Assembly (NCBI GenBank): GCA_017479705.1
Contig: JAFVCA010000028.1
Location: 1-59,360, forward strand
Direction of reading: 5' to 3'
DNA from: Bacteroidales bacterium
GTDB taxonomy: Bacteria; Bacteroidota; Bacteroidia; Bacteroidales; P3
DNA: 59,360 nt
The position numbers and the translations under genes are program-made. Position 1 is the stretch's first letter; each line of letters begins with the position of its first letter. Under the pieces are notes generated by a model. It was not told where the DNA came from and searched no databases. It saw nothing but the letters and a program-made list of their open reading frames with translations. Below, piece by piece: positions 110 through 59,360 of the stretch.

Positions 110-176
110 ACCCACCTAAGCAATTTTATGTTGAACCAAATAAATAATAGTATCACAATGGAAAGGAACAACCAAA

Positions 177-422
177 ATGAGTCATTACAGCACCAAATGT
201 TTTTGAAAACGGCTAAAATGAATCATTACAACGCCAATTGATTTTGGAGATGGCTGAAATGGGTCATTACAACGCCAAGCAGATTTGGAAACGGCTGAAA
301 TGGGTCATATAACCCCCAAGCAAATTTGGAAACGGCAAAAATGAGCCATTACAACGCCAAGCAGTTTTGGAAATGGCCGAAATGAGTCATTACGACCCCG
401 TGCAGGTTTTGAAACGCAAAAT
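177..422 (+). repeat. Six tandem copies of a 41-bp repeat
   Basis: Units begin at the ATG triplets at 177, 218, 259, 300, 341 and 382, an exact 41-bp period. Most copies read close to ATGGGTCATTACAACGCCAA followed by GCAGATTTGGAAACGGC. The fourth copy (300) has a small substitution cluster and the sixth is the most diverged. Because 41 is not a multiple of three, no frame crosses the array and each copy would encode only a short peptide starting M-x-H-Y-N-A-K. The array fills the gap between the transposase tail and the next gene, stopping about 25 bp before its start codon. Confidence 0.9.
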
Positions 423-1351: not shown

Positions 1352-2383
1352 TCAGATGGTTTTCCAGCACTGGGGGTCGGGGGCGAGCCAGGAACGATGG
1401 TAGCCGTAGGCCACGGCGGGGCAGCCGCGGCAGAAGCGCAGCAGCTCGCAGCGCGAGCATTTCTCCATCCGCTCGTGCTGGCGGTAGCGGTCCATCTCCG
1501 GGCCGTTCCAGATGTCGTACATATTCTGTTCCACCTTGCCGACATAGCTCTCCATCCGGCGGCAGGCCATCAGGTGCCCCTCAGCCGAGATGGTGAAGTG
1601 GCAGTGGGCGAAGTTGCAGCCGTCGTAGATGGTGTCGGCCTCCAGGTGGTCGGGGATGCGGTAGATGCCACGCTCGTGGAGGTAGAGCGTCCACAGGTGG
1701 TCCTTGAGGTTGAAGTAAGTGCCGCTGTCGCGGTGCTGCTCGAACTTGCGCCAGCAGCGGTCCAGCAGGTTGCGGTAGGCCAAGGGCTCAATGTGCCAGC
1801 CGCGGTCGGGCTGTGCCTTGTCCTGCACCGTGGGGCAGTAGCGACCGAAAGCGAAGATGTCGGCCTTGTGCGCCACCACGACATCAATCAGGTCGGGGAT
1901 TTCGTCGATGTTCACACCGCTCACGGTGGTCATCACGGCGCAGTCCATCCCCGCGCGGCGTATGGTGGCGATGGCCTCCAGCGTGGCGTCGAACGAGCCG
2001 GGCTTGCGGAAGGCGTCGTGCGTCGTGCGCAGACCGTCGAGCGACAGCTGGTATTTGCGGCAGCCCAGAGCCTTCAGGCGGGCGCACACCTCGTCGTCAA
2101 GGTGGAATGGGTTGCCCATCAGGCAGAAAGCAATGCCGCGGCGGTGCACCTCCTCCAGCAGGTCCCAGAAACGGCCGTGCAGGATGGGGTCGCCGCCAGT
2201 GATGTAGAGGTATGGCAGACGGTGCATCCGGCCTGCCATATCCTCGATATTCGCCAGCACACGCATCATCTTCTCCCACGGCATTTCCACCAGCTGCGGA
2301 TGGCCTTCGGAAAAAATGTAACAATGCTTGCAACGTTGGTCGCAAGCATCGGTGATGTGCCATTGGAATGCGAAGTAGTCCAT
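1352..2383 (-). CDS. Radical SAM/SPASM peptide-modifying enzyme (ACGX-type RiPP maturase)
   Basis: The 343-residue protein carries the radical SAM cluster motif C14-x3-C18-x2-C21 (CDQRCKHC) and a glycine motif (YITGGDP, near residue 60). A Cys-rich C-terminal SPASM-type region follows: CNFAHC, then MACRRME, then CSRCELLRFCRGCP and a last Cys before the end, enough for auxiliary Fe-S clusters. SPASM enzymes install cross-links or other changes on ribosomal peptides or act as anaerobic sulfatase-maturing enzymes. The neighbour decides here: the stop codon of a 51-residue Cys-Gly peptide is immediately followed by this ATG with no spacer, so the two are probably translationally coupled. The chemistry performed is inferred only. 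Confidence 0.85.
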   Translation of the reverse strand: MDYFAFQWHITDACDQRCKHCYIFSEGHPQLVEMPWEKMMRVLANIEDMAGRMHRLPYLYITGGDPILHGRFWDLLEEVHRRGIAFCLMGNPFHLDDEVCARLKALGCRKYQLSLDGLRTTHDAFRKPGSFDATLEAIATIRRAGMDCAVMTTVSGVNIDEIPDLIDVVVAHKADIFAFGRYCPTVQDKAQPDRGWHIEPLAYRNLLDRCWRKFEQHRDSGTYFNLKDHLWTLYLHERGIYRIPDHLEADTIYDGCNFAHCHFTISAEGHLMACRRMESYVGKVEQNMYDIWNGPEMDRYRQHERMEKCSRCELLRFCRGCPAVAYGYHRSWLAPDPQCWKTI

Positions 2384-2539
2384 TTACTTCTTGTCTCCGG
2401 CACCGCAGGCTCTACCGCAAGCGGCGGGTTTCTCCTCGGCGGGCTTGTCTCCGGCACCGCAGACGCTGCCGCAAGGGGTGGCAACAGTCTTGATCATTCC
2501 TTGTGCCGTGTGGGCAATGTTCCAAGCTGTACGTTTCAT
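2384..2539 (-). CDS. ACGX-type RiPP precursor peptide, 51 residues
   Basis: The frame encodes MKRTAWNIAHTAQGMIKTVA as a leader-like first part. The core follows, with two Cys blocks, CGSVCGAG (residues 23-30) and ACGRACGAG (40-48), separated by an acidic, proline-containing linker (DKPAEEKPA), and it ends DKK. The two blocks look like a duplicated core unit, each offering two cysteines. It is encoded directly upstream of the radical SAM/SPASM gene; the TAA abuts its ATG. Small peptides with Ala-Cys-Gly repeats beside such enzymes are known as ACGX-system precursors, and their mature product is, as far as I know, undescribed. No transporter or leader peptidase is adjacent in the window. Confidence 0.85.
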   Translation of the reverse strand: MKRTAWNIAHTAQGMIKTVATPCGSVCGAGDKPAEEKPAACGRACGAGDKK

Positions 2540-2571
2540 AACATTAATTGTATTTGATTATTATTACGGTG

Positions 2572-2579
2572 CAAAGATA
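2572..2579 (-). promoter_or_regulatory. -7 box of a Bacteroidota promoter for the RiPP operon
   Basis: On the minus strand the sequence reads TATCTTTG, a full match to the Bacteroidota TAnnTTTG element, 32 bp upstream of the precursor-peptide ATG. A TTTG element lies upstream at a 12-bp spacing, shorter than the usual 19 or so, so the -33 element is not convincing. Confidence 0.6.
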
Positions 2580-2716
2580 TGAAATATTCTCCAAACGACA
2601 GACTGCTTTCCAAATAATATGTCACTTTCCTTTGGGTATGTAATGGGAGAAAACGCGGTTTTCAAAGTAGACATTTTAATAATTATTATGAATGTTTCCA
2701 ACGCTTCTATAGCCGA

Positions 2717-2932
2717 AATCGCCCTGTTGGAGACACAATTAGTTGGTCACCTCCGCACCGTCCACGATGATGTATTCGCGGGTATACCTTGCTCGAAGAA
2801 AAGGACGCGGTCGGTCTGGCTACCTTCGCGCACCAGCAGGTCGCCCCGCTTCACCTCGCGCTCGGCAAAAAAACTTTTCCACCTCCGAAGCCAAGTGGTG
2901 GTCATGGTGCAGCTCCTGAATGAGAAAAACAT
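2717..2932 (-). pseudogene. Decayed Crp/Fnr-family regulator fragment (cyclic-nucleotide-binding domain)
   Basis: A minus-strand frame encodes KSFFAEREVKRGDLLVREGS followed by RVLFFEQG, the layout of the start of a Crp/Fnr effector-binding beta roll (F..REVKRGDLLVREG...FFEQG). After about residue 49 the match continues in another frame as REYIIVDGAEVTN, where the family usually has REYY..DGKEVT. Further downstream only scraps such as SAIEALE remain, and no helix-turn-helix is present. This is a short, frameshifted remnant of a regulator that once preceded the RiPP operon on the same strand; it could not make a working protein. Confidence 0.55.
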
Positions 2933-4700: not shown

Positions 4701-7700
4701 CCGAGCGTCTGTCGAACAACTTCCAGTATGCCACGGGGAGCACGGTGACGATAAGGGCGATGGCCAAGAGGGTGCCGAAACAGATGACTATGCCCATGGG
4801 CATCCAGAGCGTGCTGCGATGGATGATCATGGGTATGACACCGACGGCTGTTGTCGCAGAGGTAAGGAAGATGGGCCTCATGCGGCGGCGACCCGCTTCA
4901 AAAGCCACCTGCTTGAGGGGAAGGCCTTCGGCGCGGAGCTCTTCGGCATAGTCGAACATGACAATGGTGTTACGGACATTGATGCCGATGAGGCTGACGA
5001 TGCCGATGATGGCGGTGAGGCTGACATCGGCCTTGAAAATCCACAGCCCCACAAAGCCGCCCAACAGGCAGAGACTGGTGCCGCAAAGGGAGAGGAGCGT
5101 GAGACGTATCTTCTTGAAGTTGAAAAGGAGGAAGAAAAAGACTATGGCGACGGCGGCAATAAGGCCTACGATGATGCCGTGCATGTTGTCCTCGTTGACG
5201 GCGTCGAGGCCGCCGTAGGACATGGAGACTCCCTCCGGCAACATCTCGGAGAATTCCCCTTCAAGCCATGGCTTGAGTTTCTTGACCACGGTGGGCTGGC
5301 TGCGGCCAAAGCGCAGGTCGGCACCCACGGTGGCACAAGGGATGCCACCCCAATGGGCAATCTGGGCGGGCTGCCAGTCGGGCTGAATGGTGGCCACCTG
5401 GCGCAAGGGTACCCACACTCCGGGGATGGCTGTGGGGACAAGGGCGTTCTGCAGCTGCTCGAAATCGACAGGCAGCGAACCATCGCTGGGTGGCGCACCG
5501 CCGTCGGAAAGGCGGAGGACGACCCGCAGGGGATAATCCTGTTCCCAAAGGGTCGTGACCGGGAGGCCGCCGAAGAGGGTGGCCAGATTGGCCGAGAGGA
5601 CTGCCTTGGTGACCCCCAGGCGCGAAGCCTCGTCCTGCTTGAGGTCTATGCGGACCACCGGCAGACTGCCATCCATATCATTATGTACCCATACAAGGTC
5701 GTCGCCATGCATCTGCATGAAATGCTTCAACGTGTCAGCATATTGCCCCAGCAGGGTGCGGTCCTCGCTGTAAAGCCTCACCTCGACGGGGTTCTTTACA
5801 CCTTGGTAGTCCAACTGCTTGACGCGGATGGTGGCATTGGGATAGGCGTCGACATAGGTGTCCTTATACCGCTCAACGACCCGCTCGGTGACGGCATAAC
5901 CCTTGGTGCGCACTATCATCTGGGCATAGTTCTTGGCGGGCATGTTGGGGGAATAGGCAGCCATGAATCGCGGCGAGCTGCTGCCCACAAAAGTGGTGAC
6001 GCTCAACACATCCTCATCGCCCCGCAGCACCTGCTCGAAATCTCTGCACACCTGCGCCGTCTGCGGGAGCGACGCCCCTGCGGGCAAATGAACCTCCACG
6101 GCAAAACTGTCGCGTTCCGCCTTGGGCATAAGCTGCAAAGGGAGATTGAAAAACAGCAGCACCGCCAATCCAACTGAAAGGAGACCGGCGCCGATGGTGG
6201 GCCAGGGATGGCGGAAGCAGAGCCGCAACAGGCGCTCGTAGCCCGTCTCCAAGAGGTAGAAGAAACGGTTTTGGACCCTCGTCACCATATTCTGGCGGCG
6301 TTGCCCCGGCTTAATCATCCGCTGCTCAAGCCAGGGTGTCAGCAGCATGGCCAACGCCAACGAGACGCCCAACGAGATGCTGATGGTGGTAGGGAAGAAC
6401 TTGACGAAATCGGCCAAAGGCCCCACCATGGTGAACAGGAAAGGGAAGAAAATGGCACAGATGGAGATGGTGGCCACAATGAGCGAAGGGAAAAAAGTCT
6501 TGGCGCTGTGCACCGCGGCCGCCCACGGGCGTTCGCCGCGGCGCAAGTTGTCCATATAGCCGTCAATCATCACAATGCTGTCGTCCACAATCATGCCCAG
6601 CGTGACGATAAGAGCCGCCAGCGTGACAGTGTTCATCTCATAGCCGATGATGTACATCACGGAGATAGTGATGGCCGTGGTGAGGGGAATTTCGATGGCG
6701 GGGATGAGCGCCGAAGTGATGGGGAAAAGCAGCAGCATGACGGCAATGACCACAACGATGGCCGTCAGCAGGTCCTTGAGGAACGACCAGATGCTGTCGT
6801 CCACCACCCGGGGGAGGTCGGTGATGCGGGTGAGCGAAACCCCGTCGGGCAGCAGGCGGCGGAAGTCCTGCAAAACCACATCCACATCCTCACCGAACTT
6901 GACAATATTGTTTCCCGGTCTCATCTCAATGCTCAGCACCAAAGCCTCATGGCCATCGTGAGTGATATAGCTTGTGGGAGAGGCGTAGTTGCGCTCTATG
7001 CGCGCTACATCCTGCAAACGGACAGCCTCCCCTCCCGGTGACCAACATATCACCTGCTCGCCCAGCTCCCGTTCCGAATGGTAGGGGGAGGCCACATGCA
7101 GGGGCACCGTCTCACCCCCTCCCGCAAGGGTGCCGCCCATGCTCAGCAGCCCCTGGCTGAAGAGCTGCGCCGTGAGGAGCTGATAGCTAATGCCGTAAGA
7201 GGCAAGCCTCTCTTTGTCGATATACACATCCAGCTCCTCCTGCCGTCCGCCGAAAGACCTGACATTGCCCACGGCCGGCACCCTGCGCAGCCGCCCCTTG
7301 AGGAGGCCCATGTAGCGTTCCATCTCGCGGTAAGTCTTGTCGCGTGCGTCGAGCGTCACCAACATCGACGACGTGTTGCCGAAATCGTCCACCACCACCA
7401 CCGCCGCCACGCCGGGCGGCAACTGGCTCTTGAAATCCTTCAACCCATGGCGTATCTTCGACCACACCTCCGCCTGATTCATCACGCTGTTGTCCAACTC
7501 CACGTATATATACACCACACCCTCCTGCGTGTAGCTATGGGTGCGGCTCTTGCTCACCTCCTGAAAGGTGAACAGGTAATCCTCCAAAGGCGTGGTGACC
7601 TGCTGCTCCACCTCCTCACACCCCGCGCCAGGGTAGACCGCCGCAACAATCCCCTGACGGATGACAAACTCGGGGAACTCCTGCTTGTTCATCCTGTCAA

Positions 7701-13080: not shown

Positions 13081-13214
13081 GTTTTTAGCATCTTTTTCGC
13101 TTTTGCAAAAGTGAATTTTACATCTTTTTTCACTTCTCAAAAAGCGAATGCCACTTGTCGGCAATCGCCTTTTGCATGAGGCATTCAGTGAAAGAGTAGA
13201 AAACTGGCGATTCG

Positions 13215-13710
13215 TCCCGACAGGAACGAGACCTTGCATAACACGGTACAAGAGGACAAAGTCCTCGCAGTTCCGTGATAAGACTGTCTGAGAGCCAGCG
13301 TCCCGACAGGGATGCGACCTTGCATAACACGGTACAAGAGGACGAAGTCCTCGCAGTGCCGTGAGGAGACCGTCTGAGAGCCAGCGTCCCGACAGGGACG
13401 CGACCTTGCATAACACGGTACAAGAGGACGAAGTCCTCGCAGTGCCGTGAGGAGACCGTCGATGAGCCAGCGTCCCGTCAGGGACGAGACCTTGCATAAC
13501 ACGGTACAAGAGGACGAAGTCCTCGCAGTGCCGTGAGGAGACCGTCGATGAGCCAGCGTCCCGACAGGGACGCGACCTTGCATAACACGGTACAAGAAGA
13601 CGGAGTCCTCGCAGTGCCGTGATAGACCGGCGTCCCGACAGGGACGCGACACAAAACGAATAAACCTACCTAAAGAGAGTGTGATGGTTCTTCGATCCTT
13701 CTTCGGTCTC
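13215..13710. repeat. 86-bp hairpin repeat array, right copy (five units plus terminal half-unit)
   Basis: Units start at 13215, 13301, 13387, 13473 and 13559, an exact 86-bp period, and the final half-unit begins at 13633 after a 74-bp unit. Each unit has a small hairpin (CGTCCC-GACA-GGGACG) and a larger one: CACGGTAC (13414-13421 in the third unit) pairs with GTGCCGTG (13442-13449), enclosing GAGGAC-GAA-GTCCTC (13424-13438). Substitutions such as GAAGAC opposite GTCCTC keep the stem through wobble pairs. The end block from 13633 matches the one at 11639. Minus-strand frames stay open through the array by chance, since 86 is not divisible by three; they are not genes. Confidence 0.9.
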
Positions 13711-58542: not shown

Positions 58543-58610
58543 AGGATTGCTGCAATACACCCACACCCCAGCCCCTTTGAAAAGGAAATGACCCGCTCCC
58601 GCGAACTCCC

Positions 58611-59360
58611 CTTTTCAAAGGGGTTGGGGGTATGTAACACTCTCCTCTTCATACCCCTAACCCCTCTCAAGAGGGGAACGGCTGCCGCACCACAGGGCGC
58701 TCCTAACAACCATGCAATTGCTAAATGCCGCAACCTGTGACCCGCAACCGCGACCTCCCCTTTTCAAAGGGGTCGGGGGTATGTAACACTCTTTTCTTCA
58801 TACCCCTAACCCCTCCCAAAAGGGGAACGGCTGCCGCACCACAGGGCGCTCATAACGACCGTGCAATTGCTAAGTGCTGTAACCTACAACCTGTGACCCG
58901 CAACCGCGCACTCCCCTTTTCAAAGGGGCTGGGGGTATGTAACACTCTATTCTTCATACCCCTAACCCCTCTCAAGAGGGGAACTGCTGCCGCACCACAG
59001 GGCGCTCCTAACGACCATGCAATTACTAAATGCCGTAACCTGCAACCTGTGACCCGCTCCCGCGCACTCCCCTTTTCAAAGGGGTCGGGGGTATGTAACG
59101 CTCTATTCTTCATACCCATAACCCCTCTCAAGAGGGGAACGGCTGCCGCACAACAGGGCGCTCCTAACGACCGTGCAATTGCTAAATGCCGCAACCTGTG
59201 ACCCGCAACCGCGCACTCCCCTTTTCAAAGGGGGTGGGGGTATGCAACACTCTATTCTTCATACCCCTAACCCCTCTCAAGAGGGGAACTGCTGCCGCAC
59301 CACAGGGCGCTCCTAACGACCATGCAATTACTAAATGCCGTAACCTGCAACCTGTGACCC
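58611..59360. repeat. Palindromic 149/156-bp tandem repeat array, truncated by the window end
   Basis: CTTTTCAAAG marks units at 58611, 58760, 58916, 59072 and 59221, with spacings of 149, 156, 156 and 149; the 7-bp difference is an extra AACCTGC-like heptamer. Each unit can fold as a nested hairpin: CCCCTTTTCAAAGGGG, GGGGGTATG pairing with CATACCCC, and CCCCTCTCAAGAGGGG. A partial copy starts at about 58570. Units also share GGCTGCCGCACCACAGGGCG and TGCAATTGCTAAATGCCG. The array starts 68 bp after the giant gene and contains no supported gene. Confidence 0.9.

What the first reader, a model, noticed from the sequence alone, without database searches (positions are those of the whole stretch)
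1352..2539. ACGX-type RiPP pair with a duplicated Cys-Gly core and an abutting maturase
A 51-residue peptide ending in two CGxxCGAG-type blocks is encoded immediately before a radical SAM/SPASM enzyme, with stop and start codons adjacent. The repeated core suggests two modification sites per precursor, possibly thioether or other Cys-based cross-links. No transporter, peptidase or immunity gene is nearby, so export and cleavage may be done by genes elsewhere. The mature product of such systems is, to my knowledge, undescribed.
Basis: partly seen in the sequence, partly recalled or inferred. Interest (0 to 1): 0.75.

Follow-up and report, generated by a model that had tools for sequence, protein, structure and literature searches.

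The report
Redox-stress peptide with its radical maturase
A gut-type bacterium carries a tiny cysteine-glycine repeat peptide beside the radical enzyme that probably modifies it; many relatives, on plasmids, in a phage-like element and in an archaeon too, keep the pair beside a redox-type regulator and reductases, so it probably serves the cell's own oxidant and electrophile defence rather than being an exported antibiotic.

Summary
Observation confirmed. The 51-aa peptide (acgA, 2384-2539, -) and the radical SAM/SPASM enzyme (acgM, 1352-2383, -) abut with no gap and pass the curated cut-offs of NCBIfam TIGR04341 and TIGR04340, the "ACGX system". The kind is thus already named; no paper on it turned up in the held library.

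New is the context. The peptide lies just upstream of the enzyme in 24 of 27 loci. Within 5 kb of acgM are HxlR regulators (20 of 27), FMN/4Fe-4S (9), quinone-oxidoreductase-like (9), nitroreductase (8) and SirTM/Zn-macro genes (3), in Bacteroidales, two Bacillota plasmids, an archaeal plasmid and a phage-like contig. The window has none of these, but its contig ends 1.35 kb beyond acgM; its link rests on relatives and on a 24-bp site shared with the only HxlR locus found in its genome.

AcgM's nearest characterised family is SbtM, which turns Cys into thiooxazole. AcgA shows no signal peptide. Best reading: a cytosolic, redox-induced, Cys-modified peptide. Shown: genes, families, linkage. Inferred: chemistry, role. 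The thioether guess is unsupported.

The parts
1352..2383 (-). acgM: radical SAM/SPASM maturase, 343 aa, TIGR04340; begins directly with the radical SAM domain
   Evidence: 535.6 bits, cut-off 400; Radical_SAM, SPASM; QWHIT before CxxxCxxC; CX2CX5CX2C
2384..2539 (-). acgA: 51-aa ACGX-repeat precursor peptide, TIGR04341; stop codon abuts the acgM start
   Evidence: (35.5 bits, cut-off 28)
2477..2539 (-). leader part of AcgA (residues 1-21; the boundary is my reading), not strongly hydrophobic
   Evidence: sequence; (maximum 12-residue hydropathy 1.06 against 2.39 for the candidate SbtA)
2450..2476 (-). core block 1, PCGSVCGAG (residues 22-30)
   Evidence: sequence
2396..2422 (-). core block 2, ACGRACGAG (residues 40-48)
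   Evidence: sequence
2571..2579 (-). TATCTTTGC, like the Bacteroidetes -7 promoter box (consensus recalled, from no call)
   Evidence: sequence
2621..2644 (-). candidate HxlR operator, 105 bp before the acgA start; 20 of 24 bases as in the site before the cupin/Zn-macro/SirTM/HxlR genes of contig C14 of the same genome
   Evidence: mixed out-of-sample support

Best explanation
The pair makes a ribosomally synthesised, Cys-modified peptide that stays in the cytosol and belongs to a mobile defence module against thiol-reactive oxidants and electrophiles (quinones, disulfide stress, reactive chlorine, possibly soft metals). Step 1 (inferred): an HxlR/DUF24-type regulator with an N-terminal Cys senses the stress and switches on acgA-acgM together with flavin and NAD(P)H reductases (nitroreductase, FMN/4Fe-4S protein, quinone-oxidoreductase-like protein). 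Step 2 (inferred from kinship to SbtM): AcgM oxidises the Cys of each A-C-G-X unit by four electrons without O2, giving 5-thiooxazoles in pairs. Step 3 (inferred): the paired sulfur heterocycles act in the cytosol as scavenger or redox partner; no cleavage or export is needed. In the window's genome the only HxlR gene found is unlinked (contig C14), beside SirTM/Zn-macrodomain genes, and may reach acgA through a shared operator. Shown: the genes, their families, conserved pairing and recurrent neighbours. Not shown: expression, chemistry, function. By part: ACGX pair 0.97, redox-stress module 0.75, thiooxazole chemistry about 0.4.
For: Families. Pairing in 24 of 27 loci. HxlR: 22 ACGX genomes hold 23 strong HxlR genes (E < 1e-20; five weaker matches left out), 16 of them within 5 kb of acgM; simple proportion would give about 0.1 (my arithmetic). 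The FMN/4Fe-4S protein occurs (E <= 1e-25) in 4 of 72,556 plasmid records, from three organisms, the same 4 that hold acgM above 50% identity. Tally within 5 kb, 27 loci: HxlR 20, FMN/4Fe-4S 9, quinone-oxidoreductase-like 9, nitroreductase 8, SirTM 3, Zn-macro 3; none in the control stretch window 13001-59360. Same parts on Bacillota and archaeal plasmids. Literature: B. subtilis HypR, YodB and CatR sense HOCl, quinones and diamide by a conserved N-terminal Cys, and nitroreductase YodC is in that set (PMC6943732, passages). Operator: only two genome sites at <= 3 mismatches to a pattern fitted to both; 1 of 1000 shuffled promoter pairs does as well. Chemistry: SbtM is the next-best family for all 6 ACGX enzymes whose tables I read, ACGX next best for the one SbtM scanned; QWHIT in 23 of 23 ACGX, 4 of 4 SbtM, 2 of 11 other rows; SbtM makes thiooxazole by loss of 4 H (PMC11002830, passages).
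Against: The window's locus has no HxlR or reductase of these kinds in the 10.6 kb upstream examined nor in the 1.35 kb to its contig end downstream; its clade mates G041, G042 and G036 also have none in what could be seen (3.2, 5.4 and 1.6 kb downstream to contig ends), and G036 has no HxlR match at all. G572 and the 504-kb viral contig have neither peptide nor module genes in the stretches seen; G159 has an ABC transporter where acgA should be. The FMN/4Fe-4S and quinone-oxidoreductase-like genes were not found in the window's genome at the thresholds used; that genome is only 74.72% complete. The operator was found by eye, its search pattern was fitted to both sites, and the motif failed at the two quinone-oxidoreductase/HxlR loci tested (G041, G042). 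The branch joining ACGX and SbtM is weak (68/67). AcgM lacks the N-terminal region of SbtM, and AcgA lacks the signal sequence of the candidate SbtA. The 27 loci are not independent. No expression data exist here.
Confidence: 0.55

Rival explanations
1. Cytosolic soft-metal (Cu(I)) buffer: the O2-independent counterpart of captophorins/bufferins, whose MNIO enzymes install 5-thiooxazoles on EGKCG repeats. Same chemistry as the best explanation, but the job is copper binding.
For: 5-thiooxazole peptides bind copper, and HvfA has three AEGKCGEGKCG blocks, paired Cys-Gly units like CGSACG (PMC12668002, PMC13419390, passages). SbtM is the nearest characterised family. No transporter cluster recurs in more than 2 of 22 genome loci.
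Against: None of the recurrent neighbour families that I identified is a copper gene; not every neighbour was identified. AcgA shows no signal peptide, whereas bufferin and oxazolin precursors have one (PMC12452194, passages). The regulator is HxlR-type.
Confidence: 0.2
2. Thioether RiPP (sactipeptide or ranthipeptide) made for export, with transport and cleavage elsewhere.
For: Cys-rich core and a SPASM enzyme; SkfB is the best PDB sequence match. ABC transporter genes lie near acgM in G159 and G162.
Against: Thioether maturases score far lower than SbtM for the window's enzyme: SkfB 54.5, PapB 50.3, StsB 49.6 against SbtM 165.8 bits. No transporter cluster recurs in more than 2 of 22 genome loci. 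The residues next to the core Cys are mostly Ala, Gly and Ser, with no conserved bulky acceptor.
Confidence: 0.1
3. The peptide is scaffold for a small redox cofactor (as in PQQ or mycofactocin) used by the neighbouring oxidoreductases.
For: SPASM enzyme next to reductases; the mycofactocin locus fetched likewise holds an OYE-family oxidoreductase.
Against: Repeat number varies (0 to 4 doublets in 23 peptides) with units kept alike, which suits a multi-site peptide better than a cofactor cut from one site; no peptidase was seen among the recurrent neighbours that I identified.
Confidence: 0.08

Closest known systems
ACGX system (NCBIfam TIGR04340/TIGR04341; acgM/acgA in NCBI annotation)
   Same: Both proteins pass the curated cut-offs; adjacent genes in the same order (acgA/acgM names)
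   Different: The window peptide is the shortest of the 23 compared (51 aa, 2 doublets), with V26 and R43 unlike most units; AcgM has F258 where 21 of 23 aligned enzymes have Cys
SbtA/SbtM thio(seleno)oxazole system (TIGR04082)
   Same: Nearest characterised enzyme family; QWHIT and CX2CX5CX2C shared
   Different: AcgM lacks the N-terminal region and scores below the SbtM cut-off (165.8 against 350); AcgA shows no signal peptide and uses ACGX, not GKKCAG, units
Captophorins / bufferins / oxazolin (MNIO-made 5-thiooxazole peptides)
   Same: Repeated Cys-Gly units with several modified Cys per peptide (papers, passages)
   Different: Maker is an MNIO using O2, not a radical SAM enzyme; precursors carry Sec signal peptides; copper context
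HxlR/DUF24 redox regulons (HypR, YodB)
   Same: HxlR protein with N-terminal Cys beside nitroreductase or quinone-oxidoreductase-like genes
   Different: Here the neighbourhood includes a RiPP pair; I know of no such case (recall)
SirTM/Zn-macrodomain oxidative-stress operon
   Same: SirTM and Zn-macro genes stand with flavin or quinone-type oxidoreductases in three acg loci
   Different: No GcvH-L or lipoate ligase is annotated in the Roseburia stretch, and none appeared among the 4 Subdoligranulum and 5 G158 further ORFs scanned; an ACGX peptide and maturase stand there instead

Membership tests
ACGX system | Enzyme above the TIGR04340 cut-off (400 bits) | tested here: met
   535.6 bits
ACGX system | Adjacent peptide above the TIGR04341 cut-off (28 bits) | tested here: met
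   35.5 bits; gap 0
ACGX system | Pairing conserved in relatives | tested here: met
   24 of 27 loci; not seen in G159, G572 and the IMG/VR 504-kb contig
SbtM thio(seleno)oxazole maturase | Above the TIGR04082 cut-off (350 bits) | tested here: not met
   165.8 bits; works-like-SbtM is a hypothesis, membership is not claimed
SbtM thio(seleno)oxazole maturase | Common clade with SbtM | tested here: inconclusive
   wider group 94/92 that holds three other rows too; branch joining ACGX to SbtM plus L047 68/67; shared motifs
SbtM thio(seleno)oxazole maturase | Cys loses four hydrogens, giving thiooxazole | not testable with these tools
   needs co-expression and MS
Captophorin/bufferin | MNIO (DUF692) enzyme | tested here: not met
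   the adjacent enzyme is radical SAM/SPASM; the rest of the genome was not searched for MNIOs
Captophorin/bufferin | Sec signal peptide on the precursor | tested here: not met
   maximum hydropathy of 23 peptides 0.29-1.12 against 2.39 for candidate SbtA; no signal-peptide program was available
HxlR-controlled redox module | HxlR gene within 5 kb | tested here: not met
   not met in the window (contig ends 1.35 kb downstream); met in 20 of 27 loci
HxlR-controlled redox module | Shared operator in the window's promoter | tested here: inconclusive
   for; mixed

The most novel reading that the evidence does not exclude
AcgA is the redox carrier and the ADP-ribosylation target of the SirTM/Zn-macrodomain system in anaerobes without the GcvH-L operon. 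AcgM builds a sulfur-based redox group on the peptide, as LplA2 loads lipoate on GcvH-L; SirTM switches it off by ADP-ribosylation, the Zn-macrodomain switches it on, and the nitroreductase and FMN/4Fe-4S proteins use it. It rests on three loci where acgA-acgM stand with SirTM and Zn-macro (Roseburia, Subdoligranulum, G158) and on the open question, stated in PMC11490716 (passages), of what SirTM targets besides GcvH-L. Against it: in the window's family SirTM is hardly commoner with acgM (7 of 18) than without (59 of 172), so AcgA cannot be the only target.
Probability: 0.08. Interest if true: 0.9.

Novelty: new variant of a known kind. Interest (0 to 1): 0.62.

Why it matters
RiPP searches mostly look for exported toxins, antibiotics, metallophores or signals. 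The evidence points to a radical-SAM-made peptide that works inside the cell as part of an oxidant/electrophile response and that is found in Bacteroidales, on Bacillota and archaeal plasmids and in phage-like contigs. If the chemistry is thiooxazole, anaerobes have an O2-free route to the group that aerobes make with MNIO enzymes. It would also give an orphan maturase family a function that can be tested in a sequenced gut isolate (Roseburia sp. 831b), and a candidate partner for SirTM systems whose target is unknown.

Tried and rejected
Thioether RiPP as best reading: rejected because SbtM outscores the thioether maturases. Efflux set beside the pair as its exporter: set aside; among 22 ACGX genome loci, RND and membrane-fusion clusters recur only in the window and G039, ABC transporters in G159 and G162, two symporter types in two loci each. 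SirTM as an obligate partner: rejected, 7 of 18 with acgM against 59 of 172 without. Operator rule for all HxlR loci: failed at G041 and G042; a site of 18.1 bits lies before the HxlR/Zn-macro/SirTM genes of G061, while the best other site in the whole window scores 11.4. Phage records: only weak partial matches, 3 of 50,697. An opposite-strand choice made me scan another SPASM gene of G793 first (L074); the right one is L047. Papers on the system: none found (one search listed 20 of its 28 papers, 8 of 11). Structure prediction gave nothing.

Full report
WHAT IS THERE. On the minus strand, 2384-2539 encodes a 51-aa peptide and 1352-2383 a 343-aa enzyme; the stop and start codons touch. The peptide scores 35.5 bits against TIGR04341 (cut-off 28) and the enzyme 535.6 against TIGR04340 (cut-off 400), the two models of the ACGX system. 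Pfam sees a radical SAM domain from residue 10 and a SPASM domain. The window starts at the first base of contig C45 of a 2.1-Mb, 74.72%-complete draft genome, so only 1.35 kb lie beyond acgM. The closest named match to the enzyme, 90% identical by tblastn, is LPNH01000017.1, titled bacterium P3; NCBI's taxonomy files that name under Bacteroidales, and the contig equals G009's by length.

CONSERVATION OF THE PAIR. The enzyme passes the cut-off in 18 of 190 genomes of the window's family, 5 of 393 sampled from its order and 1 of 395 sampled from its phylum, the window's own genome counted each time. It is rare and patchy. I compared 27 loci: 22 genomes (the 18, plus G449, G534, G542 and G572), three plasmid organisms and two IMG/VR contigs. 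A small same-strand ACG-repeat peptide lies just upstream in 24 of 27: 19 of 22 genomes by the CGxxCG doublet, G449 with single ACGA units, three plasmids and one of two viral contigs. It was not seen beside G159, G572 or the 504-kb contig; in G159 an ABC transporter gene stands there. In the 23 peptides measured (all but the viral one) 143 of 152 Cys are followed by Gly; eight of the other nine lie in the leader, one in the first block of G449 (my count). Doublets number 0 to 4; the window has 2 and its nearest relative G009 has 4. Window and G009 peptides, units paired by hand, differ at 9 synonymous and 3 non-synonymous sense codons, so the short peptide looks constrained.

CHEMISTRY. For the window enzyme the next family after ACGX is SbtM (165.8 bits), then heme b synthase AhbD (124.4). 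SbtM is likewise second for the five further ACGX enzymes whose tables I read. In reverse, a protein over the SbtM cut-off (G609, 487.5 bits) has ACGX second at 157.4 and the next family at 84.4. All 23 ACGX enzymes and 4 SbtM proteins in the tree set share QWHIT before the CxxxCxxC motif and a CX2CX5CX2C SPASM motif; of 11 other radical SAM rows two have QWHIT (L047, L077) and two the SPASM form (L047, L028). The tree puts ACGX (92/98) and SbtM (100/100) in one wider group (94/92) with three other rows; the branch that joins ACGX to SbtM plus L047 is weak (68/67) and end branches are long. SbtM forms thiooxazole from Cys with loss of four hydrogens (PMC11002830, passages; the primary paper was not held). 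The candidate SbtA beside two of these SbtM genes has an apparent signal sequence and Cys units such as GKKCAG. MNIO enzymes make 5-thiooxazole on EGKCG units, paired in HvfA (PMC12668002, PMC13419390, passages). So ACGX units look like thiooxazole substrates, but no call tests this.

CONTEXT. Clustering of neighbours and Pfam showed recurrent HxlR regulators, zinc-type quinone-oxidoreductase-like dehydrogenases, nitroreductases and a fused PNPOx/4Fe-4S protein; apart from acgM, acgA and these, only a lumazine-binding-like family (3) recurs in more than 2 of the 22 genome loci. The tally within 5 kb of acgM, for 27 loci, is HxlR 20, PNPOx/4Fe-4S 9, quinone-oxidoreductase-like 9, nitroreductase 8, Zn-macro 3, SirTM 3; the control stretch (window 13001-59360) gave none. 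Six loci have none: the window, G041, G042, G036, G572 and the 504-kb viral contig, several cut short by contig ends. The loci are related, so they are not 27 independent events, but they span Bacteroidales, Bacillota and Archaea. In 22 genomes there are 23 strong HxlR genes and 16 lie within 5 kb of acgM. The PNPOx/4Fe-4S protein is in 7 of 22 genomes, in 6 on the acgM contig within 3 kb, in the seventh near a contig start. In the plasmid collection it is found only in the 4 records that carry acgM. The Roseburia plasmid has HxlR (divergent), then acgA, acgM, nitroreductase, 4Fe-4S, ADP-ribose hydrolase and Sir2 genes; Subdoligranulum has the same set with the last two swapped; the Methanosphaera plasmid has 4Fe-4S, HxlR, acgA, acgM (annotated as two pieces) and the dehydrogenase. 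The Sir2 and macro proteins match the solved chains 5a3a and 8rsi/5kiv best; that these are SirTM and Zn-macro structures is partly recalled. IMG/VR contig L119 carries acgA, acgM, an ABM-domain gene, a nitroreductase and HxlR between a phage amidase and a tape-measure gene.

THE WINDOW'S OWN LINK. The window has no module gene in the 10.6 kb upstream examined or the 1.35 kb downstream. Its genome has one HxlR gene at E <= 0.001, on contig C14, following cupin, macro and SirTM-like genes. The promoters of that locus and of acgA share a site, 20 of 24 bases, 98 and 105 bp before the start codons. A pattern fitted to both finds only these two in 2.1 Mb at up to 3 mismatches, reversed-pattern control 0. 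1 of 1000 shuffled promoter pairs matches as well, and none of 400 other window pieces did (maximum 19). An out-of-sample scan found a fair site (18.1 bits) before the HxlR/macro/SirTM genes of G061 but none at the dehydrogenase/HxlR loci of G041 and G042. I count this as suggestive.

HOW IT LIKELY WORKS. HxlR/DUF24 proteins such as HypR and YodB sense HOCl, quinones and diamide by an N-terminal Cys (PMC6943732, passages); the HxlR proteins printed keep a Cys near their start. AcgA has no strongly hydrophobic start (0.29 to 1.12 against 2.39 for the candidate SbtA) and no recurrent exporter or protease was identified beside it, so it probably stays in the cytosol. The best reading is a stress-induced, Cys-modified peptide acting with reductases. 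Rivals are a copper buffer, an exported thioether peptide and a cofactor scaffold. The boldest reading, AcgA as partner of SirTM/Zn-macro in place of lipoylated GcvH-L (PMC4518038, PMC11490716, passages), is open, but SirTM is not enriched with acgM in the family (7 of 18 against 59 of 172).

NOVELTY. The family is named in NCBIfam and NCBI uses acgA/acgM. Searches for the model names, ACGX system, ACGX-repeat, acgM and related word sets found no paper on it in the held open library; subscription papers are not covered. The same searches showed no paper on the HxlR/reductase/SirTM association. I rate it a new variant of a known kind: a radical SAM RiPP with an apparently intracellular redox role.

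Noticed in passing
L119 (IMG/VR 3300010998_001242), about 4743-7245: A phage-like contig carries acgA-acgM with an ABM-domain gene, a nitroreductase and HxlR between an amidase and a tape-measure gene, as if the redox module were phage cargo.
   Followed up: partly
L120 (IMG/VR 3300028886_000026, 504 kb), 4989-6026: A jumbo-phage-sized contig with a tail-collar gene encodes a full ACGX enzyme (480.9 bits) with no recognisable ACGX peptide in the 11 kb fetched; its substrate is unknown.
   Followed up: no
window AcgM residue 258 (1610-1612, -): The window and G009 enzymes have Phe or Leu where the other aligned relatives have Cys (GCNCG), but keep Cys 261; several other members have Cys 258 and lack 261, as if a SPASM ligand can swap place.
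   Followed up: partly
L086 6971-9456 (contig C14 of the window's genome): Cupin, Zn-macrodomain, SirTM-like and HxlR genes in a row, with no GcvH-L or lipoate ligase noticed among the ORFs listed: a SirTM locus type whose target is unknown.
   Followed up: partly
L047 370-1806 and L074 (G793:C124): A 478-aa enzyme between ACGX (225.5 bits) and SbtM (159.1), with QWHIT, lies on a contig with four similar small peptides resembling nif11-type precursors (recalled resemblance; no NCBIfam match for the one scanned) and another SPASM maturase.
   Followed up: no
L095 7667-9019 (Methanosphaera plasmid pNP174): The archaeal acgM is annotated as two CDS pieces; its peptide has seven single CGx units and no doublet and gives no TIGR04341 match.
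   Followed up: no
window 2747-2932 (-): Short ORF resembling part of a cyclic-nucleotide-binding domain (recalled resemblance), perhaps a gene remnant between acgA and the efflux set.
   Followed up: no
window 174-421; 13213-13629; 58589-59360: Tandem arrays with 41-bp, 86-bp and 156-bp units; the first precedes the DUF6261 gene, the last runs to the window end.
   Followed up: no
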